From the NCBI GenBank assembly GCA_028753945.1, contig JAPNXP010000008.1, positions 4,216,001 through 4,280,000 of the forward strand: 64,000 bases of DNA, given 5' to 3'. The notes under the pieces are model-generated. The model searched no databases, had not been told where the DNA came from, and saw nothing but the letters and a program-made list of their open reading frames with translations. Shown here in pieces: positions 1 to 37,362 of the stretch (its first letter is position 1; every line of letters starts with the position of its first letter). The DNA comes from Hexactinellida sp. DTS-2022. Its lineage: Eukaryota; Porifera; Hexactinellida. The translations under genes and the position numbers were made by a program.

Positions 1-1162
1 TGAATACTGTAAACGGAGTGCTGATTATTAATGGGAATATAAACCCAGATTGTTGAGAGCGAATACTACAGGCTATGTAGCTGATGGTGTATGCAAGCAA
101 TGCGAATATTATATTAACCGCTAGGACGGCTGAAAGCGTGCCTCCTAAATCGAATGCATTTCCAAGTTCCTCGAAAAATGTATCCATGTTACCCAAGTTG
201 TGTAATATAAAGATCACCGGTCCTATTATTAAGAAGGCAAAGAACCGAATTAGCGAGTACAGCAAGCCGCCCTTCCACCTGGCATTGGCCTGCACACATC
301 TATCCGGTTCTCTACCGGAATCCACGAATTTGAGGAGTAACGCTTCTCTCACAGTTGCGAGCGTGAGGTGCGGTTGTACTGTTAGATTCTGGATATTGGG
401 GCTCCATAGGAGAGATAGCATTAGCAGGCTTAGGATGAGAATTACGTAGGAAGAAATTTGCATACTTCTTTCACCGATAAGTTCTATTTGCAAATAATGC
501 CCAATAATTAGCATGATGGGTATTCCAACTAGGGCCGCTGTATGTATTGTAAACGACAAAAATAGCAAAATATTTTTCCCAATGCAAGGCCATGAGAGTT
601 TCATTCCGTCCTTAACTGTGTTTAAGGTTTGCAGCAGAATAGTTGCTGAGAAAGTCCCGGCCAGAATAAGCAGGAATATGTCCGGCTCAAGGTAGGGGCC
701 CGAGAAGAATAAAATCTCGCTAATGCAGAGTATTTCTAACAATGTCACCGTTAATCCTATTATCAGAGAGATCGCGTTTGGCCAGGGGTAGGTTATAGCG
801 TTCTTAGCGAAGGTCCCGACCAGGTAACAACGTACTGCATTGAATAGATTGGGCACCAGTACTATGAACATCAGCATTAGGAATCCCTTTACATTTTCTG
901 AGAATTGAACATTTCCATCGATTTTGTTGAGTAAAGAGACTGTCTTTGCAAGGGTTATTTGGTTGAGAACAAGACTCAGCAGCATCACCGAGAATAACAC
1001 AGTGGCTACGACCCACTTTAGCACAGTGTACACACGCGCTTGCAGCTCTGGCTGTTGTCTGTCGATATTCTCCGATTCATTGTCTTTCGGTTCTGGGAGT
1101 TTTTGCAGACTTTGTATGTCTGTTAGCAGCGTGTTCGTAATGCTTGTTGCTTCAAATGCCAT
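1..1162 (-). CDS. Chitin-synthase-like N-terminal multi-span region (partial)
   Basis: One open frame runs on the minus strand from ATG at 1162 to the window edge: 387 codons with no stop, so the gene continues beyond the window. After a polar N-terminus of about 45 residues there are several hydrophobic segments: WVVATVLFSVMLLSLVL, FLMLMFIVLVPNLF, ISLIIGLTVTLLEILCI, FLLILAGTFSATILL, ILLFLSFTIHTAALVGI and others. The order and wording (PNLFNAVR..., then ...ACSIRSQQSGFIFPL) resemble the membrane-embedded N-terminal part of metazoan chitin synthases, which precedes the GT2 catalytic domain at the plasma membrane. The catalytic motifs (EDD, QRRRW) lie outside the window, so the call rests on the N-terminal pattern only. 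Transcription diverges from the GALNT gene 461 bp away. An unrelated multi-pass protein cannot be excluded. Confidence 0.6.
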   Translation of the reverse strand, partial: MAFEATSITNTLLTDIQSLQKLPEPKDNESENIDRQQPELQARVYTVLKWVVATVLFSVMLLSLVLNQITLAKTVSLLNKIDGNVQFSENVKGFLMLMFIVLVPNLFNAVRCYLVGTFAKNAITYPWPNAISLIIGLTVTLLEILCISEILFFSGPYLEPDIFLLILAGTFSATILLQTLNTVKDGMKLSWPCIGKNILLFLSFTIHTAALVGIPIMLIIGHYLQIELIGERSMQISSYVILILSLLMLSLLWSPNIQNLTVQPHLTLATVREALLLKFVDSGREPDRCVQANARWKGGLLYSLIRFFAFLIIGPVIFILHNLGNMDTFFEELGNAFDLGGTLSAVLAVNIIFALLAYTISYIACSIRSQQSGFIFPLIISTPFTVF

Positions 1163-1623
1163 TTGAACACAAGAGTGTACTAGCTAATAATATACACTCT
1201 TATATATACTGTCTAAGTATCGAGTTATAGTTACTGTTAATAATAATAATTACTCAACATGCTCTGTAATGCTTGTTGTGACCATAAGCTCCAAGTTTGG
1301 GATTTTATGCAATTGTTAGGGAGTTTGACACACCTTTAGGTTAATAGTATTACTTTTTAACTTATACGTATGTACGGTAAACTAGATTAAAACTACTGTC
1401 ATATATATGTAAGATATATGTAAGATATATGTAAGAAATAATTTATTTAATGGTTTAGTAATTGACCCCCCCTCCCTCCAGTTTTTGAAGAGATATCGTA
1501 TATCGTTTAGAGATATGTGACTCTACATATTCTCATTAGTACACAGGCTAGGAAACTAGTTAACTTGTAACGATTATTCCATGCTAGTTCAATGCTTTAT
1601 CCTCACATACGTGACGCCTCGTT
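1163..1623. promoter_or_regulatory. Divergent intergenic region, chitin-synthase-like / GALNT
   Basis: This 461-bp AT-rich spacer lies between two divergent starts and must hold both promoters. Visible landmarks are TATA-rich runs near 1190-1210 and a short triple tandem of ATATATGTAAG at about 1401-1436. A C-rich run sits at 1467-1480. No specific factor site can be supported. Confidence 0.35.
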
Positions 1624-4405
1624 ATGAAGAAATTAGTTCGATTTTGCGTGTCTTGCATTATAATATCAATCGTACTCCTCACAACACTGATACTATGGCT
1701 GCTAATCCCATCGAGAGCTGACCCCTATCTGCATTTCCCAGATCAGACCCAGCAGGATAATTCACAGCACGAAGATTCCCCAGTAGATACCAACCCCTCA
1801 CTTGGTAACCTAATGTACTTCGATGAACAGAGTTACATAGCCGGGACGCTTATAAAGCCTGGAGAAGATCCTTATGCTAAGCATGCGTTTAACCAAGAGG
1901 CTTCTGATGCTATTCCTGCCGGCAGAGACATACCTGACTACAGACACGTGCAGTGTAGGATAAAGGCTTACGGCTCTCAGCTGCCCTCCACTGCTGTCAT
2001 TATCTGTTTCCATAACGAGGCTCGCTCCACTCTCCTGAGGACTGTGGTCAGCGTTCTAGACCGCAGCCCTCCTGAGCTAATTAGAGAGATTATACTGGTA
2101 GATGACTTCTCGGACGATAGTGAAACTGGAAGGTAATTATACTATGTCTATTTAATTATCTTTAATTTATTAGCAATTTGTTTTCATTTTGCTAAGTTAT
2201 TTATTGATCTCTTTATTTAGATTTATTTATCCATTTGTTTAATTATTTATTTATCTTTTGTTTAGTTAGTTAGTTATCAATTTGTTTATTTACCCATCAA
2301 TCTATTTAGTATTTATCAATTTGTTTATTTACCCATCAATTTATATATGTATTTATTTATCAATTTATTTACTATGTATCAATCTATTTATGTACTATGT
2401 ATCTCCATTATTTCACCTTGGTTAATATATGTAGTTTACTGGTATCTATTCCCAAAGTGCGGCTAATCCGAACTGAGAAGCGGGAGGGCTTGGTGCGGGC
2501 CCGCGTTATGGGCGCCACCGCCGCCACTGCGCCCGTGCTCACATTCCTGGACAGCCACTGCGAGTGCAGTCCCGGCTGGCTGCAGCCGCTCCTGGCGAGG
2601 GTTGTGGAGAAAAGGAATGTTGTCGTCTCTCCCGTTATCGATATAATAAGCATGGATGACTTCAAGTGAGTTTCCTACCTCTCTCAGTTTGTACGTACAT
2701 GGGTTTTCTATTAGTATACTAATAATTATATTTTATTTGTACTTCTATCTACGTACAGTGATGAACTAATTGGTTATAAATTGCAAATGATAGATGAGTT
2801 AATCTCAAATTAGAGACATCCCTCTTGATAGTGTAATTAATGCGTGGAGGATTTGCTGTTATTCTAGTTGGAGTTTGTCATAAGGATTATTCCAAATTAT
2901 TAACTAATGAGATTGTGCTATAACTAATTCTAATAATAGAATACTTCTCTTCCTCTGTCAGAATAACAATATATTATTGCGCTATTACTCTGCAGATACA
3001 TCTCCGCCTCTTCTGAGCTTAAGGGGGGGTTCGACTGGAACCTGCACTTCAAGTGGGACGCGCTAACCGAGAGGGACAAGAAGCAGCGCTTCTCCTCCTC
3101 GGACCCGATCTCCACTCCGATGATAGCCGGCGGTCTCTTCTCAGTGGACACCAGCTACTTCTCTGAGATCGGGGCCTACGACACCAAGATGGACATATGG
3201 GGAGGCGAGAACTTCGAGATATCATTTCGCGTCTGGCAGTGCCACGGGGCGGTGGAGATCCTCCCCTGCTCGCGCGTGGGGCACGTGTTCAGGAAGAAAC
3301 ATCCGTATTCCTTCCCGGACGGAAACGGTGCCACCTACACCAAGAACACCAAGAGAACAGCCGAGGTATGGATGGACGGGTTAGTTAAGCTAACATTGTA
3401 CACTAACAGGCCAAATGTATGCGAACAACAACAATAGTATTCTTATATTCAAGCTTCTATCAGCATAATAAATGGCATGGAATTATAATATTTTTTAATT
3501 TCTAACTATAGTAAGATATTTATAGTCATTTCAGAGTTTAAACAGCCGTTAATAAGCTATCAGACGAATATTGTGTCTGCATTAAAAAGCCTGTTGTTCA
3601 CATACTTATGCTGGTTAGTGCACTATAGCATATCTATAACTGCTTATCGCTATACAGATACAAAGAGTACTATTACGCCGCGAGACCCGGGGCCCGGAAG
3701 TTCGCAGCTGGAGACCTGACGGAGCGTAAGCAGCTGAGACAGGACCTGAAGTGCAAATCCTTTCAGTGGTACCTGGAGAATGTGTATCCGGAGATGCTCC
3801 CCTCCAGCGACCAGAAGATAGGCAGCATCAAGAATAACGGTACAGTAATCCTCTCTCAGTACCAACACGTTAATTCATATGGAATTCCGGTTAATATGAA
3901 TACTATTTCAGACCTTTCAAAGCCTTTTCAATACAAATTATATTTGGTTAATACTATCATATTGATTAATTCGGTCCCCTGGTGTTCGTACTAACGAGAT
4001 TATACACTAGTTTAAGTGCGGTATATTACATAGTGCTTATACACTGTTTCCACAGATAACTACTGCCTGGATACGCTAGGCCACACCAGCCACGGGTCCG
4101 TGGTGGGACTGTACCCTTGTCACGGAGAGGGCGGCAATCAGAACTGGATGACAAGCGACAAACACGAGATTAAGAACGAGAACGCGTGTCTCTGTGCTGA
4201 CGGGACCTTCACAAACCTGCTACAGACCTTCTGTTCCTTTCGCTCTGAGTGCCAGTGGGATATGACCGGAAGAGCTGTCAAGCTGCTTAACGGGGACAAG
4301 TGCTTTTCTCGGTCTCAGGACAATTCCTTCGTGATTTTAGAAACGTGTCAGGACACCCCTGGACAGCACTGGGAGTTCTCCTCCCTCTCTGTCATCGCGC
4401 CGTGA
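1624..4405 (+). CDS. GALNT: Polypeptide N-acetylgalactosaminyltransferase (5 exons)
   Basis: This Golgi enzyme starts mucin-type O-glycosylation by moving GalNAc from UDP-GalNAc to Ser/Thr. Exons are 1624-2132, 2435-2665, 2996-3379, 3658-3839 and 4056-4405, all with GT-AG borders and matching phases, giving 551 aa. The protein has a short cytoplasmic tail and one signal-anchor helix at about residues 8-28. The GT2 domain follows, with VDDFSD, the metal-binding DSH at 209-211, [20 protein letters not shown] and [11 protein letters not shown]-terminal ricin-type lectin domain has paired cysteines ([25 protein letters not shown]). The loop between DDFSD and KVRLIRT is a little shorter than usual; no extra exon is visible in the 302-bp intron 1, which is made of TTTATTTAYC-type simple repeats. 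Intron 4 is filled by a TIR element. The paralog within the GALNT family cannot be assigned. Confidence 0.93.
3843..4007. mobile_element. pogo-type TIR element (MITE) filling GALNT intron 4
   Basis: The element starts with CAGTAATCCTC directly after the donor G|GTA, so its TA target site overlaps the splice donor. The right end is GTACTAACGAGATTATACACT, the degraded inverse of the TIR. The interior (CCGGTTAATATGAATACTA, CGGTCCCCTGGTGTTCGTA) matches the elements at 46298 and 52813. It has no coding capacity. Confidence 0.6.
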
Positions 4406-27299: not shown

Positions 27300-28014
27300 G
27301 ACAAAGAATCCGATGCAAGACCAAGAAATTCAATTTCAAGAACAAGAAATCCTATTCAAGACCAAGAAATCCAATTTCACGACCAAGAAATCCAATTTCA
27401 CGACCAAGAAATCCAATTTCACGACCAAGAAATCCAATTTCTCGAAGAAGAAATCCAATTTCACGAACAAGAAATCCAATTTCTCGAACAAGAAATCCAA
27501 TTTCTCGAACAAGAAATCCAATTTCTCGAACAAGAAATCCAATTTCTCGAACAAGAAATCCAATTTCTCGAACAAGAAATCCAATTTCTCGAACAAGAAA
27601 TCCAATTTCTCGAACAAGAAATCCAATTTCTCGAACAAGAAATCCAATTTCTCGAACAAGAAATCCAATTTCACAAACAAGAAATCCAATTTCACGAACA
27701 AGAAATCCAATTTCTCGAACAAGAAATCCAATTTCTCGAATAAAAAATCCAATTTCTCGAACAAGAAATCCAATTTCACGAACAAGAAATGCAATTTCTT
27801 GAACAAGAAATCCAATTTCACGAACAAGAAATCCAATTTCTCGAACAAGAAATCCAATTTCTCGAACAAGAAATCCAATTTCTCGAACAAGAAATCCAAT
27901 TTCTCGAACAAGAAATCCAATTTCTCGAACAAGAAATCCAATTTCACGAACAAGAAATCCAATTTCACGAACAAGAAATCCAATTTCACGAACAAGAAAT
28001 CCAATTTCACGAAT
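27300..28014. repeat. 21-bp minisatellite, about 31 units
   Basis: The unit is 21 bp with core GAAATCCAATTTC, then TCGAACAA or ACGAACAA. From about 27363 to 28014 there are 31 near-identical units, with degenerate starter units from 27300. Two main variants (T or A at one position) occur in blocks: the first three units and the last four carry A, most of the middle T. Because 21 is a multiple of three and the unit lacks stops in most frames, long open frames arise on both strands; they show repeats such as KKSNFSN, EQEIQFL or FLVREIG. I treat them as by-products, not genes. The array ends directly at foldback copy 2. Confidence 0.9.
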
Positions 28015-28134: not shown

Positions 28135-28766
28135 TTTTCGCCATGTCATGAACGCCTCATGGTGTTTAGACTCATTTAACAAGTTGTTACGGGACTAAGT
28201 AACTATTGTTGAATTTGAAGTTTATTTCTATCTTAAACCATCTTTAATTTATTGCCATTCATTATGTATAGATAATAAATAATATAAATATTTAATTATT
28301 TTAGCAATGTTATCCAAGGTGAGTTGTTTAAATTCAACAAATTCCTTATTTAATTAATTTAATTTGATTCAATCCATTGTATTTGTATAGGTACAATTAC
28401 AAGTTAAATCAATTTAATTATCGCAAGTTGAAACAATAGTGAAAAGATTTAATAAGTTAAATCTTCTTACTCTCGACCAATTAAACTACAGCTTCAGTTA
28501 GGCATTCTATATGCACACTAACAAATGATAGAAAATCCTTTTATACTAATTGGATGCTAGCTGCTAATTCATACTGGGACAACCCTCGAATTTAATTGGC
28601 TAAGCCATAATTGGATTAAATAGGTGTTAAAATTATTTGATCATAAATCGTAACCCCAGGTGCAAATTAGAAGGGCACTCCGCACCTACATGCCAAATTT
28701 AAGCTCTCTATGTATAAAGGTGTGGCCAGGGCACCGTCTACGGAGAAAAAAAAAAAAAAAAAAATA
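28135..28766. other. AT-rich spacer with an inverted Helitron-derived segment and a poly-A run
   Basis: The part 28490-28600 is the reverse complement of about 29877-29990 in Helitron copy 2 (shared words include GCTAGCTGCTAAT / ATTAGCAGCTAGC and TAAAAGGATTTT), so a piece of a related element sits here in opposite orientation. A run of about 20 A lies at 28746-28764, directly before Helitron copy 1. No gene seen. Confidence 0.5.
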
Positions 28767-29688
28767 TCTTATATATTAAATCACAATGATTTTTTGTTTT
28801 TGTTTGTTCAGAATTGATTGAGGAACTGGTAAGAGCTACAGACTTGAAATTTGGCAGGGGGATAGGGAATAGTGTATCTAGAAACAAGTTCTAATATCTA
28901 AGAAAAATATTCTCATCTTCCTTCCCTAAAGGTGACAAAACCTTTAGCTGTTAAGTATGCATTATAGAAAGCCTGTAATTTAATTGGCTGAAAAAATAAA
29001 AACAAATAATTATGGGCCAATACATTTGACCAATAAATTTTACCCTATAAGTTAGTACTTAGATAGTCCCATAAATCGCATAAATAGTCTATTTAGTAAA
29101 AGTTAACCTCAAACCACCCTATAAACTCTTCATTTCCAAACTTTTGATTAATTAATTAATTAAAACCTTCATAATGCCCCGAATTACTAAACGCGGACCT
29201 CAGCGCAAATCACGTTTTACTAAAAACGATGCGTTGAGAATGGAAATTGTGAGGACTAATGAAACATTAAATGCTAAACAAGCCAGGCTTGAAAAACAGC
29301 AAGAGTACTGTACTATATATTAAACGCGATGATTATTTGTCCGTCTGCACTTTAATTCGGAACTGTAATTATAAGGGATAATTATATAATTGAAATTTGG
29401 CAAGGAGATTTGGTTATAAATTGAAGGAGCAGTTAAATAATAAACGAATTATGCGAACCTCGCTGAATAAACCAAACATATTTTATTTTTTAAGAATTAT
29501 TTAAATATTAGTAATAATTGTCTCTTCAGCAATTGCACAAGATTGCACGAATTTTTTCGTTACATTCCATAATATGGAATTTATTACAAACGGCATAACA
29601 TCAGAAAGAGCATTTACTTTAATACAAGCGAGGGCCGCAGGCCCGAGTGCAAGTTGTAAGAACGCGCGTAGCGCGGACGAGCAGCTTG
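28767..29688 (+). mobile_element. Helitron copy 1 (non-autonomous, 922 bp)
   Basis: The 5' end is TCTTATATATTAAATCACAA followed by a T/G-rich run (TTTTTGTTTGTTC) and ACTTGAAATTTGGCAGG, the layout of many animal Helitron 5' ends. The 3' end has a hairpin CGCGC-GTA-GCGCG, 13 nt before the terminus CAGCTTG, with a second small palindrome (GGGCC-GCA-GGCCC) further in. There are no TIRs and no target duplication, as expected of rolling-circle elements. The next element starts at the very next base. A decayed 49-codon frame inside (29174-29323) looks like a remnant of a Helitron protein. Confidence 0.82.
29174..29323 (+). pseudogene. Short relic frame of a Helitron-encoded protein
   Basis: ATG 29174 opens MPRITKRGPQRKSRFTKNDA and continues RTNETLNAKQARLEKQQEYC before a stop. 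The basic start and the N-E-T...A-R-L-E-K wording recall the Arg/Glu-rich N-terminal repeats found in proteins of autonomous Helitrons and Pif1-type helicases. Only 49 codons remain; no Rep or helicase domain is present. Confidence 0.4.
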
Positions 29689-30724
29689 TCTTATATATTA
29701 AATCACAATGATTTTTTTGTTTGTTTGTTCAGAATTGATTGGGGAACTGGTAAGAGCTACATACTTAAAATTTGGCAGGGGAGTAGAAAATAGTGTATCT
29801 AGAAACAAGTTCTAATATCTAAGAAAAATATTTACATCTTCCCTCCCTGAAGGTGACAAAACCTTTAGCCTATAAAATTCGAGGGTTTTCCAGTATGGAT
29901 TAGCAGCTAGCATTCAGTTTGTATAAAAGGATTTTAGAGTATCTATCAATTGTTAAGTGTGCACTATAGAATGCCTATCTGAGACTGTGATTTAATTGGT
30001 CGAGAGGAAGTTCATTCATCCAATCAGTTATTGTGTTCCCTCTGTCTACCCATACATTTTTAACATTCCATTGTGTCTATTTGATAATGACCAATCTATT
30101 CAATAACTTCTCCACAGCCCAAAGTCAGGGGTCCACAGAGTTCTACAGTACAGTTCCTAAGTGATATTTATTTTATATTTGGAGTTAGTTTATTAATATA
30201 CACGGACATGCGTTAATATCTAGAAAACTGTCAGTTCTAATTAGCATAATATTCAACAATACAGGCGCTGATTAGTATTTCCCAATGTATTTTTTATGTC
30301 CTTATGCGTTCATATATACTTATGGTTGGGGACCTGGGATCCACGGATAAATAGACAGCTTAGGGGGGCACAGCCCTACTCTGAAACAATAGCAATACTG
30401 TTTTGTGGGTCACTAGCGGTCACCTAAATATTTCCATTAGATTCCCGTACTCAATGGGGTAAGTGTTAACTTACAACCCGTCCTTTCTATTTCAAAAATG
30501 ACAAAAAGCGTGATGTAGGGAGGGGTATATAATTTTTTCGTCGATTTCTCGCTCCATAATCGAAAGTTTTTTATAGGAGCCTAGATTCAGTTTAAGTCTA
30601 TTGGAGTACGTAATTAAATACAACCGACATTTAATTTGAAAAGGCATGTGTTTTGAAATACAAGCGAGGGCCGCAGGTCCGAGTGCAAGTTGTAAGAACG
30701 CGCGTAGCGCGGACGAGCAGCTTG
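29689..30724 (+). mobile_element. Helitron copy 2 (non-autonomous, 1036 bp), head-to-tail with copy 1
   Basis: It starts TCTTATATATTAAATCACAA at the base after the CTTG end of copy 1 and ends with the same 3' hairpin and CAGCTTG at 30724, followed by T. The last 68 bp differ from copy 1 at one position only. The 5' 200 bp also match copy 1 closely, while the interior differs: copy 2 has its own segment (about 29880-30560) with no coding frame. Confidence 0.82.
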
Positions 30725-30951
30725 TAGTATATAATAAAGGCAGTGATTCCAATACTGGGCCACTATACTATAGTATAGTCGGCACAGTAAAAAGAATGGC
30801 TTGGTGACCCTCACAGCTTTGCAATAACTACTTTGGCTATTCACTATTAGTTCACTCGCGTGTCTGTACTTTGTATCAAGTTTCATTATAATTATGCTCA
30901 ATCAATTGGTCAATAATTATCTCCTATTTCTATTATTCCCGAATTAACAAA

Positions 30952-32859
30952 ATGTCTCTGTCTGCATCGAATCTGCATAACCTGCGTGTGAGCCCGCCCG
31001 CCCCTTCCGAGAGGTCGAGTCTAGTGTCCACAGCTGAAGACATACCACTGACCCAGGACGGGAGTCCATTTAGAGCTCTCTGCTTTTTCGGGGGGCCCAG
31101 GATCCCGTTACACGATCGCTATAGACTCTACTACTTCCTATTCATTCTAGTACTGCAGCGGATTTACTACTATAACAGTACATCTCTGCTTAGTGAAGTC
31201 CTTACGAATAGTTTTGAGGTGTTTAAGAACGATGGTTCCTTCATTCTATCCATCCTCCTACTCTCTATTCCGGTGCTGCTAGCTCCTATATTCGGATATC
31301 TGTCGGACTCGCCTAGATTCCCTAGACAAAAGCTTTTGAATCTCAGTCTCTTAATTTCCTTCGTATCCAGCTTATTCTTGTTAGCATGCTATACAGTACT
31401 ACAGGTAACTTCTACTAATTATGAATACCCTTTCCACAACTTGTCACCCGTGCCCCACACTGTGATACAAGTGTTGTCTGTTCTCAGTTTGGTGCTTTTT
31501 ATTCTCGGATTTGCGCTATTTCTTCCCCTCTCATGCCCTTATGGTCTGGATATCTTGCATCAGAATATCATTCCTACCCTCATTCTGTACTTTTCTATGT
31601 TCTACGTAGCAAATAACATAGGCTCGCTCCTGGCTTACTTCCGCTATTTATACTTTCCGCACAGTCAGCTGGTATACCACTCAATCGCTGCTTCTCTCGT
31701 TATATTCTTTACCTGGCTGCTGTTTGTATTAGGCAGGTTCTATAACATCCTGCCCAGGTCTCCAGTTGTGACGAATACGTTCTCTTTCAAGAAGGGGTTT
31801 GGCGTAGTAGCCCAAGCTATAAAAAGGCGAATTGTTGAAGGAAAAACTCTTGGGAATGTTTCGATATTGAAATACGCACTAAGAGATCACGGAGGTTCCT
31901 ACAGTTTGAATGTAGTGAGAGGGACCAGCTCTTTGATAAAGATTAATTTCGCTCTAATTATGCTGCTATTAGTATTCGGTGTATACCAGACAATAGAACA
32001 GCTGTTCCCAACCCAATCCAATTTCCTTCGCTGGCCTCAATTTAGGAATATCTCAAAGTCTTATTGCTACCAGGAAAAGTATGTTCATTTTAAAAATATT
32101 TCACTTGTGGATGATATATCTTTGATTCTGTTTGCTCCTGTTTTCGAATACTTTTTCTTTGACGTGACGTTTGGGTATCAAAGTAACTCGTCTCGCCTCC
32201 CTTGTTTTATTAAATGCATTAGAATAGGGTTCTTAAGGAGAATGGTTTTTAACATTCGTTATTATCTAATCCGCTACCTGTTCGTGGAGAACTTGCTGAA
32301 GAGAATGCTGTATGGCCTCCTTATGTGTCTCCTCGGAATTCTCATATCACTCGGTGTTGATGTTGCTAGAGTAAAAGCTAATACTGAGCAGCTATACTGT
32401 CCAGATACTAATAAAACAATTTATTTTTCAAATCTCTCCATTTTTGCTCAGATTCCCCAGTACATTTGTATTGGATTTCTAGAAGTGATTACAATAATCG
32501 GTTCTCTCCAATTCGTGTACTATCAGTGTAGTAAGCATTTTGGTAGCGCAATGAAGGGGTTTTTCTTTGGACTATACTATTTCTATCTTGGCTTAGGAAC
32601 GCTCTTTGCGAATATTTTCTATTTAATATTAAACCAGATTTGTATAAGCTACGGTTGTAACTATTGCATGGTGTACACACCGCATTGTACAGAGGGAGAA
32701 CTGAGCATCACTTGGATACCCTGGATAGTCGTATTCTTTGTTTGCCTGTTTTGCAACTTTATTCCTTTCTTCGTTTTCGCACATTCTCGACAATGGAAAC
32801 TTGAGAAGAATGAAGTGGAGTTTGAGGGACAGTCAATTCATATAATCGTTAATCCCTAA
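30952..32859 (+). CDS. POT/SLC15-like peptide transporter, paralog 1
   Basis: Single exon, 635 aa, major-facilitator fold with about 12 hydrophobic segments. The proton-coupled oligopeptide transporter family moves di/tripeptides or histidine. Family features are GYLSDSPRFPRQ (loop 2-3), LPLSCPYGLDIL and FYVANNIGSLLAY (the POT F-x-x-x-N-x-G-S motif), and IPQYICIGFLEVITIIGSLQ with the conserved Glu of TM10. It resembles SLC15A3/A4 most. The TM1 ExxER proton-coupling motif is replaced by LQRIYYYN. It is the most diverged of three tandem paralogs; all are on the same strand with spacers of 280-420 bp. Confidence 0.8.
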   Translation: MSLSASNLHNLRVSPPAPSERSSLVSTAEDIPLTQDGSPFRALCFFGGPRIPLHDRYRLYYFLFILVLQRIYYYNSTSLLSEVLTNSFEVFKNDGSFILSILLLSIPVLLAPIFGYLSDSPRFPRQKLLNLSLLISFVSSLFLLACYTVLQVTSTNYEYPFHNLSPVPHTVIQVLSVLSLVLFILGFALFLPLSCPYGLDILHQNIIPTLILYFSMFYVANNIGSLLAYFRYLYFPHSQLVYHSIAASLVIFFTWLLFVLGRFYNILPRSPVVTNTFSFKKGFGVVAQAIKRRIVEGKTLGNVSILKYALRDHGGSYSLNVVRGTSSLIKINFALIMLLLVFGVYQTIEQLFPTQSNFLRWPQFRNISKSYCYQEKYVHFKNISLVDDISLILFAPVFEYFFFDVTFGYQSNSSRLPCFIKCIRIGFLRRMVFNIRYYLIRYLFVENLLKRMLYGLLMCLLGILISLGVDVARVKANTEQLYCPDTNKTIYFSNLSIFAQIPQYICIGFLEVITIIGSLQFVYYQCSKHFGSAMKGFFFGLYYFYLGLGTLFANIFYLILNQICISYGCNYCMVYTPHCTEGELSITWIPWIVVFFVCLFCNFIPFFVFAHSRQWKLEKNEVEFEGQSIHIIVNP

Positions 32860-33141
32860 ATATTTATTTAACCAGTGAGCTTGTTTATGAATTGTATTGT
32901 TTATCCTATTATTATATTATCCATTCGTTATTTCTCTATCATCAATGTCGTAATATGATATTGTCTGAACCTTCATAGTATCCGTAGACAATGTAATATG
33001 TCCTGAAATACAAACAAGATTGTAGTCCTTCCAAGTCATTGATAAAATATCCCAGCTATACATTTTGCTGAAAGACGATATTATTTATTGAGAAACATTG
33101 TGTTATTTGTTGTTTGTACAAATATTACTAAGATAAACTGA

Positions 33142-35061
33142 ATGGCTACTTGTGATGAAATTGAAGAAAGTCTTCCCCTTAACCAGAGTTTTAATACCCT
33201 AAGTACGAAACAATATTACGATAGCATTGAAGGGCTCGGGACTTACAATATAATTGAAAATATCGAACCTACAATTCCTGGCGAAGAGAACGGAGTAATA
33301 CCTATCTTGCTTATATTTGGCCCTAAACTTAAGTTGATTCGGTTTGTTCGTTTGATTTTCTTCTTGCTAATTGTATTAATTACTAACATTTACTTCGCAA
33401 ACTCACATGGCCTTCTATCTACAGTGGTTTTTGATATTACTCATAGTGATACTTTAAGTTTAAGTGATCAAGGTCCTGTTGTTGTTTACTTAATTCCTTT
33501 TCTGCTGTCAGGCCTCCCTCTTATGCTCTCCTTGTTATTCGGGTTTATTTCAGACTACACTCATTATCAGAGAACGTATCTGATTAGCTATAGTTTGGTA
33601 TTTGCGTCTTGTTCTTCTTTCTTCTTGATGTTGTGTAGTATTTTGCTAGGCCCCCCCACATGCTCATGCGACAAAATAACTGCAGTCACCCTGGCATTAG
33701 TCACATTCTCAGTTATATTTTACATTATTGGTTATGCCATATTTCTACCCATATCTTTGGCATATGGCTTAGATTTGTTAGAAGGCACCAGTTGGGAAGT
33801 GAAATACTTGTATTTTCCGATGATTTACGTCGTGATTAAGTTGGCACAAACACTTGGGGTTACTGTGTATACTTATTTCCCAGCATCTTATTTTATGGAG
33901 AACTGCATAATATTGTTTTCTATTATATTTTTCGCGTTGCTTCTATTCATCATACTGCGCATCTGTCAAATATTCCCAATTTTTGATAAGAAAAGCAATG
34001 AATTTGAGGTAATTTCATTTCGTAAAGCGATGGAAATATTTTGGAATGCTTTAAAAGTTCGTTGTTCTGGACAAAAGTCACCTCGAGGCCATTGGTTCAT
34101 TCAACTCTCCTCAGATGCACATTACGGAAAATATCCAAGGAAACAGGTACAGATGGTTGCATCTTTATTCGAGATGAATTTTCTATTTCTAATTATTTTG
34201 TTTTTATTTATTACTTCTCAAACGGCATTAACTTTATTCCCAAAACAAGGAAACCTTTTGCATCATCCGATATCCAATATTTCAGAGGTTTGCATGGATA
34301 CTGAAGGCCCTACGCTGATCAATCTTAATTTTATTAACTTCATCACCATTGTACTATGTACTCCATTCATTGAGTATTACTTCTATAAAGTCATTTTCTA
34401 CTTTAATTCCACTGATAACCTGAAAAATATTAACAAATCCGTTTGGCAAAAAGTAAAGAAATGTCTCCGTTGTTTCGACCGCTACTGGCTTGTGTATGAT
34501 CCCATTCTGAAGAGAATATTTTTGGGATCTTTTTTTGGTCTTATTAGCATGGTGTTTGCTTTTTCTGTTGAAATTGTTCGCTTAAATTCGAATACTTCTA
34601 CCCTCACATGTTATGACAATAGTTCTTTTCCGCCCTGGGTGTATACTATATCAGATGTGAGTATTTTCTTCCAAGTTCCACAGTATATTGCATCTGGTAT
34701 CCTGGAAATACTGTCTTACATCGGCATCCTTCAATTCGTATATTTTCAGTCAAACAGTACCTACCAAGATGACCTGAAAGGACTTTTCTTTGGTTTATAC
34801 TATTTCTATTATGGACTGGGTAGTGTAATTTCCTTGTTGGTTTATTATTTAATGGCTCTTCTATGCTCTGCTACAAGGGGATTATGTCTCATTTATGTTG
34901 AAGAGCACCCTTCTTATGTTTACCCATTGGGTTGGTTGCCGTTTGCAATTCTTGTAGCAGTTTGTCTGATAGCCATAGGAGTGCTTGCTTATTTTGCACA
35001 CTATCGACACTGCCAACTTTTCAAGATAAAAGCCAATTTCTTTGTTGATGAAGAAGGATAA
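33142..35061 (+). CDS. POT/SLC15-like peptide transporter, paralog 2
   Basis: Single exon, 639 aa. The order of parts is as in the family: GFISDYTHYQRTYL, FLPISLAYGLDLL, KYLYFPMIYVVIKLAQTL, a cytoplasmic loop with FRKAMEIFWNALKVRCSGQ and GHWFIQLSSDAHYGKYPRK, then VPQYIASGILEILSYIGILQ with the TM10 Glu. TM1 (VRLIFFLLIVLITNIYFANS) has no ExxER. The cysteines and N-glycosylation sites in the large loop (NISEVC, NSST) suggest a lumenal or extracellular domain. The loop between TM6 and TM7 is identical to that of paralog 3 for 57 residues. Confidence 0.8.
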   Translation: MATCDEIEESLPLNQSFNTLSTKQYYDSIEGLGTYNIIENIEPTIPGEENGVIPILLIFGPKLKLIRFVRLIFFLLIVLITNIYFANSHGLLSTVVFDITHSDTLSLSDQGPVVVYLIPFLLSGLPLMLSLLFGFISDYTHYQRTYLISYSLVFASCSSFFLMLCSILLGPPTCSCDKITAVTLALVTFSVIFYIIGYAIFLPISLAYGLDLLEGTSWEVKYLYFPMIYVVIKLAQTLGVTVYTYFPASYFMENCIILFSIIFFALLLFIILRICQIFPIFDKKSNEFEVISFRKAMEIFWNALKVRCSGQKSPRGHWFIQLSSDAHYGKYPRKQVQMVASLFEMNFLFLIILFLFITSQTALTLFPKQGNLLHHPISNISEVCMDTEGPTLINLNFINFITIVLCTPFIEYYFYKVIFYFNSTDNLKNINKSVWQKVKKCLRCFDRYWLVYDPILKRIFLGSFFGLISMVFAFSVEIVRLNSNTSTLTCYDNSSFPPWVYTISDVSIFFQVPQYIASGILEILSYIGILQFVYFQSNSTYQDDLKGLFFGLYYFYYGLGSVISLLVYYLMALLCSATRGLCLIYVEEHPSYVYPLGWLPFAILVAVCLIAIGVLAYFAHYRHCQLFKIKANFFVDEEG

Positions 35062-35478
35062 GATTCTCATTAGTTTTAAGTTGAATTATTTTACAATCCA
35101 TTTTGTTTTGATGATATTCCTGTTAAATTGTTAAAATTGTTAACTTTTATCTTAACATTACTTGGTGCTGAAATGGCATATTTTCTGGCTGTGCACGAAA
35201 TGGGGCAATATTAAGAAATAATAATTTATTTAAATTGTTTGCATGGAATACTACAAACACATTTCATTCCGTGTCAAGGCTGAATTTTCAGTAGGTTTAC
35301 TGTTTCCAAAATAATTAATTAAGAACACGTGAGTTAATATCTGCTATGGTGTGCATCCAACAATTGTGTTGGTTTACTTGTGCTATTCGATTCTTGAAAT
35401 ATCATATTGCAGTTCCCTATTATATAAAGTCCGCTTATTAATTAATATAATATTATCAAAAATAAAGAAAAATGATTA
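35062..35478. other. Spacer between transporter paralogs 2 and 3, 417 bp
   Basis: AT-rich. It must hold the 3' UTR of paralog 2 and promoter of paralog 3. No repeat or gene seen. Confidence 0.4.
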
Positions 35479-37362
35479 ATGGCTGTCTTTGAGACTGATC
35501 GAGTGCTCCCGTTAAATGATTTAAGTCAAGATTCGTACTATAGATATATCGAATCAACTAGCACCTACACTATATTAGGAACTCTCAAGCCAATTTCTCC
35601 AGATGAGCAAGATGGAAAGGTTCATATCTTGCTCCTAGCCGGTCCTAAAATTACAATACTACGGTTCGTACGTGTGGTTTCATTTTTTATAATTGTGTTC
35701 CTCTTTGGTATTTACAAGACAAATATTCATCGACTTTTAGATATAGTGGTTTACAATATTTCTAAGAATAGCACTGACGAAGCACATTTAACGTTAAATA
35801 CTATTCTAATTGTGCCCGTTATCATGTCAGGACTGCCTCATATGCTAGCTCTGCTGTTTGGATTTTTCTCAGACTACACTCACTTTCAGAGAGTGTATTT
35901 GTTAACTTTTAGTTTGTGGTCCTTAACCTTATCGGCTCTTTTCTTGATGTTGTATAGCTTTTCTGTTTCACCAGACAACGCATACCCACCAATAGATAGA
36001 ACCAATGAGGCATTAGTTGTGCTGTCGATTATATTTTACATTTTTGGGGTTGCCATGTTTCTTCCCACATCATTAGTCTATGGCTTGGACTTGTTGAGAG
36101 GCACCAGTTGGGAAGTGAAATATTTGTATTTTCCAATGTTTTATGTCGTGATAAATCTAGCTGATACATTCAAATATGTTGAATACTTTTCCTTTCCTTA
36201 TCCGAATATCCAAAATAAATGTGCTACTACTTTTTCAATTATGCTATTTACATTGCTCATGTTTTTCTTGTTTCGTGTGCTTCAAATATTTCCGATTTTT
36301 GAAAAGAAGTGCAATGGGTTTGAGGTCATTTCATTTCGTAAAGCGATGGAAATATTTTGGAATGCTTTGAAGGTTCGTTGTTCTGGACAAAAGTCACCTC
36401 GAGGCCATTGGTTCATTCAACTCTCCTCAGATGCACATTACGGAAAATATCCAAGGAAACAGGTACAGATGGTTGCATCTTTATTCGAGATCCATTTTCT
36501 ATTTCTATTTCTTTTGTTTACTTTCGTTATATCCCATATGATCTCAACATTATATGCGAAACAAGCTTCCTTTCTGTATCCTCCAAATTCTTTCAATTGC
36601 CATGATGAAGAAAGTCCTAAACGGATTAATATTCATCCTATCAACTCCATCACCATTGTACTGTTTACTCCATTCATTGAGTATTACTTTTATAAAATGA
36701 TTTTCTATTTCAATTCCACTGATAGCCTGAAAAATAAGAACAAATCCGTTTGGCAAAAGGTAGTGAAATGTCTCCGTTGTTTCGACCGATACTGGCTTGT
36801 GTGTGATCCCATTCTGAAGAAAATATTTTGGGGATTTATTTTCGCTCTTATAAGCATAGTGTTTGCTTTTTCTGTTGAAATTGCTCGCTTAAATTCGGAT
36901 ACTTGTAACTTCATATGTCTTGACAATAGTTCTCTTTCGACCAGGGTGTATAATATATCAGATGTGAGTATTTTCTTCCAAGTTCCACAGTATATCTCCT
37001 CTGGTATCCTAGAAATTTTATCATATATTGGTTGTCTGCAGTTCGTTTATTTCCAGTCAGCAAGTACGTATAAAGAGAATTTGTTGGGCCATTTCTTTGG
37101 TCTATTCTACTTCTACTATGGCCTAGCTACCGTATTCTCTTCTTCAGTTTGTTACCTGCTGTCTCTTGTATGCATTCAGGGATACTGCTTTGTTTATATG
37201 GATAGGTTTTCTCTAGCTCATTACCAAAATGTTTGGTTGTTGTTTGTTGTTCTTAGCTTAGCCTTTTTGGTCGTTATAATACTGTTTGCTTGGTTTGCAC
37301 ATTATCGCCACTATCAACTTTCTAAAATGAAACAGAATTTTTTTGTTGATGAAGAAGGATGA
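35479..37362 (+). CDS. POT/SLC15-like peptide transporter, paralog 3
   Basis: Single exon, 627 aa, clearly closest to paralog 2 along its whole length, including the C-terminus (FVDEEG in both). Motifs: GFFSDYTHFQRVYL, FLPTSLVYGLDLL, the shared loop FRKAMEIFWNALKVRCSGQ, and VPQYISSGILEILSYIGCLQ with the TM10 Glu. TM1 again lacks ExxER. I chose ATG 35479 because it aligns with the start of paralog 2 (MA..ETDRVLPLND against MATCDEIEESLPLN). Recent tandem duplication is evident. Confidence 0.8.
   Translation: MAVFETDRVLPLNDLSQDSYYRYIESTSTYTILGTLKPISPDEQDGKVHILLLAGPKITILRFVRVVSFFIIVFLFGIYKTNIHRLLDIVVYNISKNSTDEAHLTLNTILIVPVIMSGLPHMLALLFGFFSDYTHFQRVYLLTFSLWSLTLSALFLMLYSFSVSPDNAYPPIDRTNEALVVLSIIFYIFGVAMFLPTSLVYGLDLLRGTSWEVKYLYFPMFYVVINLADTFKYVEYFSFPYPNIQNKCATTFSIMLFTLLMFFLFRVLQIFPIFEKKCNGFEVISFRKAMEIFWNALKVRCSGQKSPRGHWFIQLSSDAHYGKYPRKQVQMVASLFEIHFLFLFLLFTFVISHMISTLYAKQASFLYPPNSFNCHDEESPKRINIHPINSITIVLFTPFIEYYFYKMIFYFNSTDSLKNKNKSVWQKVVKCLRCFDRYWLVCDPILKKIFWGFIFALISIVFAFSVEIARLNSDTCNFICLDNSSLSTRVYNISDVSIFFQVPQYISSGILEILSYIGCLQFVYFQSASTYKENLLGHFFGLFYFYYGLATVFSSSVCYLLSLVCIQGYCFVYMDRFSLAHYQNVWLLFVVLSLAFLVVIILFAWFAHYRHYQLSKMKQNFFVDEEG

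What the first reader, a model, noticed from the sequence alone, without database searches (positions are those of the whole stretch)
28767..30724. Two Helitrons joined exactly head to tail
The 3' end CAGCTTG of copy 1 (29688) is followed at the next base by the TCTTATAT start of copy 2, with nothing between. The two 3' tails differ at one of 68 positions, but interiors differ. Such seamless tandems are predicted by rolling-circle transposition when insertion targets an element end or when the 3' terminator is passed; they fix both termini of this family (TC...CTTG rather than the common CTRR).
Basis: partly seen in the sequence, partly recalled or inferred. Interest (0 to 1): 0.72.

Follow-up and report, generated by a model that had tools for sequence, protein, structure and literature searches.

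The report
Two Helitrons stacked head to tail
Two different members of one jumping-gene family (Helitrons) sit end to end with nothing between them, most likely because the newer one landed exactly on the front edge of the older one; such pairs are already known from maize and bats.

Summary
Copy 1 (28767-29688) ends CTTG and copy 2 (29689-30724) starts TCTTATAT at the next base. Both are short derivatives of a Helitron family with about 640 left and 640 right ends in this 112-Mb genome, inserting between A and T. A 7.0-kb element on C1 with the same ends carries Rep, PIF1 helicase and OTU domains. The pair is not a rolling-circle dimer: copy 1 is 97.7% identical to a solo copy elsewhere, and partners were not nearest relatives in any of five pairs measured. 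The simplest history is that copy 2 came first and copy 1 inserted at the A^T formed by the host A and the T of copy 2's TC. Nine independent loci have a tail within 30 bp before a head, three of them exact; target-weighted random insertion predicts 0.004-0.11 exact joints, but interior nesting also occurs (L048), so the size of the excess is uncertain. One other pair, whose inner tail lost its final G, has moved as a unit; bypass is not needed here. Exact head-to-tail Helitrons and CTTG ends are in print: a new example of a known kind.

The parts
28766..28766 (+). host A of the A^T target, left of copy 1 (and, by inference, formerly left of copy 2)
   Evidence: A precedes 33 of 35 heads that start TCT, G the other two, which are the window and C7 joints
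28767..29688 (+). copy 1, non-autonomous Helitron, 922 bp, TC...CTTG
   Evidence: 97.7% identical full-length solo copy L009 with unrelated flanks
28767..28948 (+). left terminal region (head) of copy 1
   Evidence: 92.9% identical to the copy 2 head; aligned with the autonomous element
29174..29323 (+). 49-codon ORF start (MPRITKRGPQRKSRF...) whose DNA is also present near the 5' end of the autonomous element
29309..29409 (+). second, internal Helitron head-like stretch (TATATATTAAACGCGATG ... GAAATTTGGCAAGG): copy 1 looks like a chimera with two heads and one tail
   Evidence: repeats D3 and D6; alignment break against the autonomous element
29621..29688 (+). right terminal region (tail) of copy 1, ends CAGCTTG
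   Evidence: 641 genomic places of its last 23 bp at <=3 mismatches
29663..29675 (+). subterminal hairpin CGCGC-GTA-GCGCG, 13 nt before the end
   Evidence: folding z only -1.55; the stem is visible in the sequence
29688..29689 (+). seamless joint CTTG|TC
29689..30724 (+). copy 2, non-autonomous Helitron, 1036 bp, TC...CTTG
   Evidence: nearest of 41 other sampled elements L050/L041 at 91.1%
29689..29869 (+). left terminal region (head) of copy 2
30657..30724 (+). right terminal region (tail) of copy 2 with hairpin at 30699-30711
   Evidence: (z -0.59)
30725..30725 (+). host T of the A^T target of copy 2
   Evidence: T follows 44 of 44 tails in the C1 sample

Best explanation
Two non-autonomous members of one canonical Helitron family inserted one after the other. 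Copy 2 went first into A^T (28766 | 30725). Copy 1, a different chimeric subfamily, then inserted at the A^T made by that same host A and the first T of copy 2's 5' TC. Its CTTG end was joined to that T, which leaves a seamless, same-orientation CTTG|TC joint with the younger copy upstream. The RepHel transposase of a relative such as the 7-kb element, acting in trans, is the inferred enzyme. Shown: ends, A^T rule in the sample, different lineages, a RepHel element with the same ends. Inferred: the order of insertion and the enzyme.
For: A before 33 of 35 TCT heads, the two exceptions being the exact joints themselves, and T after 44 of 44 tails in the C1 sample: only upstream insertion of copy 1 respects A^T; copy 2 landing after copy 1 would need G^T. 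Copy 1's nearest relative is solo L009 at 97.7% and copy 2's are L050/L041 at 91.1%; in the five tandem pairs measured (two of them the same composite at two sites) partners are 88-94% identical where they match and are not each other's nearest relative. The A^TC site at a head is an acceptable target in a shift-tolerant model (4.3% of background A^T sites score as high). An insertion inside a resident head is seen at the C1 trio: left flank ...TCTTATATACTACGTATATA, right flank TATATATTAAATCAC. The autonomous candidate has TC head, CTTG tail, Helitron_like_N, PIF1, Pif1_2B and OTU.
Against: No empty site or population sample was available, so the order is inferred. In the fixed-position target model the A^TC site scores poorly (19% of background A^T sites score as high; only 7% of real sites score as low). 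Some published Helitron insertions lie outside A^T (PMC4778049, PMC2267711, passages read), so G^T insertion of copy 2 is not impossible. The lower divergence of copy 1 from its nearest relative is weak evidence of age, since only 42 of roughly 640 elements were compared.
Confidence: 0.85

Rival explanations
1. Rolling-circle concatemer: replication passed the terminator of one element or ran round a circular intermediate and laid down two copies in one event.
For: Gives exact CTTG|TC joints; transposon circles with precise head-to-tail joints are described for Helraiser (PMC5876387, passages read).
Against: A concatemer has two copies of one sequence; here the matching stretches cover only 24-27% of each partner and copy 1 exists solo (L009). 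In none of the 5 tandem pairs measured are the partners nearest relatives.
Confidence: 0.03
2. Copy 1 was resident and copy 2 inserted behind it at G^T.
For: Du et al. 2008 leave this order open for the maize pair (PMC2267711, passages read).
Against: T follows 44 of 44 sampled tails, and A precedes every listed TCT head except the exact joints; no independent G^T case was seen in those samples.
Confidence: 0.08
3. The pair arrived already joined, as a composite transposon copied from another pair elsewhere.
For: Composite movement does seem to occur in this family: L003 and L004 share the whole two-element unit at 97% with different flanks on both sides.
Against: Only one other place has the exact CTTG|TCTTATATATTAA joint (C7) and its partners are of other subfamilies. 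The first tail here keeps its final G. A source pair with a decayed joint could have been missed.
Confidence: 0.04

Closest known systems
Adjacent head-to-tail Helitrons of maize (AF466202; Du et al. 2008, PMC2267711, passages read)
   Same: 3' end of one abuts the 5' TC of a different Helitron, G/T joint, different contents, explained by consecutive insertion; the same two orders are discussed.
   Different: Maize ends in CTAG and was one case; here there are three exact joints plus near ones in one family, which lets A^T usage be counted.
Perfect head-to-tail Helitron junctions of Myotis lucifugus (Pritham and Feschotte, as cited in PMC2267711; original not read)
   Same: Seamless junction of the ends.
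   Different: There interpreted as tandem repeats; here the partners are different lineages.
Pleurotus HELPO2 (PMC4289320, passages read)
   Same: Helitron with A^T insertion, TC or TG 5' end, subterminal hairpin, CTTG 3' end.
   Different: Fungal family; its relation to this one was not tested.
Helraiser / Helibat1 (PMC4778049, PMC5876387, passages read)
   Same: A^T insertion, AT-rich preference strongest on the 3' flank, 3' hairpin terminator that can be bypassed, RepHel protein.
   Different: CTAG end; whether it has an OTU domain was not looked up.
FoHeli of Fusarium (PMC5148889, passages read)
   Same: One insertion 2 bp upstream of another's 5' end, elements with several 5' termini and one 3' terminus, composites by self-insertion.
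   Different: Helitron2-like ends with asymmetric inverted repeats.

Membership tests
Helitron (canonical, Helitron1) | 5' terminal TC | tested here: met
   35 of 41 distinct head contexts start TCT; four of the other six are tandem joints
Helitron (canonical, Helitron1) | strict 3' CTRR | tested here: not met
   CTTG at 44 of 46 tails matched with <=2 mismatches in the C1 sample, CTTA in 2. CTTG is reported for Helitrons in PMC4289320 and PMC4778049, so this excludes only the strict textbook motif
Helitron (canonical, Helitron1) | insertion between A and T without target duplication | tested here: met
   T after 44 of 44 tails, A before 33 of 35 TCT heads, exceptions being the exact joints; no filled/empty allele pair was available
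[quoted passage not shown]
   CGCGC-GTA-GCGCG ending 13 nt before the terminus; energy z-scores weak (-1.55, -0.59)
Helitron (canonical, Helitron1) | autonomous partner with Rep (HUH, two Tyr) and PIF1 helicase and the same ends | tested here: met
   C1:3607610-3614650 minus: PF14214 2.5e-63, PF05970 2.7e-79, Pif1_2B, OTU; LPHAHILV and YLYKYVYK (meaning of these motifs recalled). The frame is read stop to stop; mobility not tested
Consecutive-insertion head-to-tail pair (maize type) | seamless joint, different interiors | tested here: met
Rolling-circle concatemer | adjacent copies identical or nearest relatives | tested here: not met
Helentron / Helitron2 | asymmetric terminal inverted repeats | not tested
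   not searched for specifically

The most novel reading that the evidence does not exclude
Resident left ends are preferred landing pads for their own family because the transposase cleaves A^TC in a resident copy just as it does in the donor, so younger copies stack upstream, in the same orientation; once the inner terminator loses its last base (CTTG to CTT), the stack moves as one new composite Helitron.
Probability: 0.4. Interest if true: 0.5.

Novelty: new member of a known kind. Interest (0 to 1): 0.3.

Why it matters
It gives, for a new family, a likely answer to the order question left open for the maize pair (A^T on the outside, G|T only at the joint). It also points to a set of about 640 copies in which self-targeting at the 5' end and escape through a damaged terminator could be counted rather than illustrated by single cases.

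Tried and rejected
Rejected: dimer by one rolling-circle event; chance joint. Target preference alone as an explanation: two models give 0.0037 and 0.11 expected exact joints against 3 seen, and 0.065 and 0.28 expected within the first 24 bp of heads. The models rest on 44 tails from 40 stretches of contig C1 (0.8-13.5 Mb); one of the 44 (C1:12372388) was included because one search had hit it, the rest were taken without regard to their flanks.

Against the self-targeting reading: insertion into element interiors does occur. In the C1 sample one element of this family lies inside another in opposite orientation (L048). Scaled from that single event, about 15 interior insertions genome-wide would give about 0.35 per 24 bp, so local clustering could raise the expectation several-fold. 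The two interior controls gave 0 hits but cover only two 30-bp windows in one orientation; their motifs occur in 36 and 31 of 42 sampled elements against 36 of 42 for the head motif. The reversed-head control gave 1 hit (C12:5264739), which was read (L074) and is not a head; 0.09 would have been expected, so its absence carries little weight.

Dropped rows: 3 of the 12 hits (C1:12372388, C13:2304129, C17:2985976) are AT-rich flanks, not heads. A further same-orientation pair with an 86-bp spacer (C1:15502871, L072) is not counted among the nine loci. In one search only 40 of 1,682 candidates were scored, so near joints with decayed ends may have been missed.

Inconclusive: at L002 and L006 the joined flanks do not restore a TC head, so those residents either had damaged 5' ends or another history; at L005 the join resembles a head only loosely. 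At L007 the upstream copy's head is too degraded to tell. At C6 (L014) the restored head has extra TA units, so the three-layer reading is good but not letter-exact. Tail hairpins fold only weakly better than shuffles. Literature searches (listings, plus passages of seven papers, of which PMC13286980 and PMC6544945 added only background): nothing on this particular family was recognised.

Full report
What is there. The window is G000:C17:4216001-4280000 of a 112-Mb, 18-contig assembly, eukaryotic by its genes (my reading). Copy 1 is 28767-29688 and copy 2 is 29689-30724. The joint is GAGCAGCTTG|TCTTATATATTAAATC with no base between. The 68-bp tails differ at one position and the heads are 92.9% identical over 182 bp. 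Copy 2 then carries about 80 bp that copy 1 lacks; apart from a short stretch that can be aligned by eye, the interiors beyond are unrelated.

The termini are real. L009 on C1 is a solo, 911-bp, 97.7% identical copy of copy 1 bounded by A| and |T; its 100-bp flanks match the bases beside copy 1 at 25% and 31%. Genome-wide there are 641 tail places and 640 head places at up to three mismatches (reversed-pattern controls 0 and 14). In 44 tails from 40 stretches of C1, T follows 44 of 44. Of 35 distinct head contexts that start TCT, 33 are preceded by A; the other two are the window and C7 joints. The 3' flank has a consensus close to T-N4-ATAA, in line with the 3'-sided AT preference reported for Helraiser (PMC4778049, passages read).

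Family. An element at C1:3607610-3614650 (minus strand, 7,041 bp) has the same TC head and CTTG|T tail and a 1,640-codon stop-to-stop frame with Helitron_like_N, PIF1, Pif1_2B and OTU domains; whether it is active was not tested. It is a canonical Helitron whose 3' end, CTTG, departs from strict CTRR; CTTG has been reported for HELPO2, and for maize and some Helraiser products (PMC4289320, PMC4778049, passages read). Copy 1 looks like a chimera: its first ~545 bp, including a 49-codon ORF start, follow the autonomous element, and then a second head-like stretch begins near 29309, followed by one tail. Elements with several 5' ends and one 3' end are described for FoHeli (PMC5148889, passages read).

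How the pair arose. In one search, 42 elements were compared. In the five tandem pairs measured (window, L002, L011, and L003 and L004, which are one composite at two sites) neither member is the other's nearest relative: copy 1 goes with L009 (97.7%) and copy 2 with L050/L041 (91.1%). So the two copies are separate insertions. Given the A^T rule, copy 1 landing on the A^T formed by 28766 and the first T of copy 2 is regular, while copy 2 landing on G^T is not. Du et al. raised these two orders for the maize pair (PMC2267711, passages read).

How unusual it is. One search (tail, up to 30 bp, head motif) gave 12 places, of which 9 are heads on inspection. Three more came (L005, L007, L014). After merging a duplicated trio on C1 and the two copies of one composite, these 12 places are 9 independent loci: three exact CTTG|TC joints (window, C7, C6), one resident head split further in (C1 trio), four at heads or head-like stretches that lack TC (L002, L005, L006, L007), and one with an 8-bp spacer. 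At C6 a further Helitron of another family, about 1.5 kb long, sits 7 bp inside the resident head; the resident head continues after it, with extra TA units. Reversed orientation gave no real case (1 hit, not a head) and two interior windows gave none. Expected exact joints are 0.0037 with a fixed target model and 0.11 with a shift-tolerant one; for the first 24 bp of heads the figures are 0.065 and 0.28. Against this, the C1 sample holds one element nested in the interior of another, in opposite orientation (L048), which scales roughly to 0.35 per 24 bp. I read the excess at heads as real but its size as uncertain.

Terminator bypass very likely occurred in another pair. L003 (C1) and L004 (C10) share a complete two-element unit at 97% over about 2.2 kb, with different flanks beyond the outer TC and the outer CTTG. 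The inner tail has lost its final G (CTT-TAATAATAA|TC), and only these two places matched that joint at up to three mismatches. The simplest reading is that a pair with a damaged inner terminator moved as one unit. Ten of the 40 C1 stretches also carry an internal tail ending CTTA, which may record an earlier bypass in one subfamily.

Verdict. A correct and well-observed case of a known configuration. Most interesting is the collection: it would allow a test of whether a transposase treats resident left ends as targets.

Noticed in passing
window 28466-28603: Inverted relic of a related element just upstream of copy 1 (83.7% to copy 2 positions 177-322, minus strand).
   Followed up: no
window 30731-30798: A ~65-bp palindrome-bearing repeat beside copy 2, matched at some 40 places or more, often in short tandem runs (40 of 161 candidates scored); similar letters flank the Helitrons in L032 (3') and L036 (5').
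   Followed up: partly
window 27322-28013: 33 copies of a 21-bp unit, open in several frames on both strands.
   Followed up: no
G000:C6:89909-165310: Seven exact heads on one strand within about 75 kb, perhaps a segmental array.
   Followed up: no
L003 479-2694 and L004 (minus): Two-element composite at two unrelated sites; the inner tail lost its terminal G.
   Followed up: yes
L048 1498-2572 inside 936-3118: One family member nested inside another in opposite orientation.
   Followed up: partly
genome-wide: 151 Helitron_like_N matches from 150 of 292 scored candidates, in at least two score classes (about 220 and 104 bits), several in open frames of about 1,700-1,930 codons.
   Followed up: partly
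window 30892-37362: Three long neighbouring ORFs of similar multi-membrane-span proteins by eye, apparently a tandem gene family.
   Followed up: no
L068, about 75 bp upstream of the autonomous element: Head-like stretch TTAAATCTCGATTGTTGTTTGTTTG of a second Helitron family, also seen in L014.
   Followed up: partly
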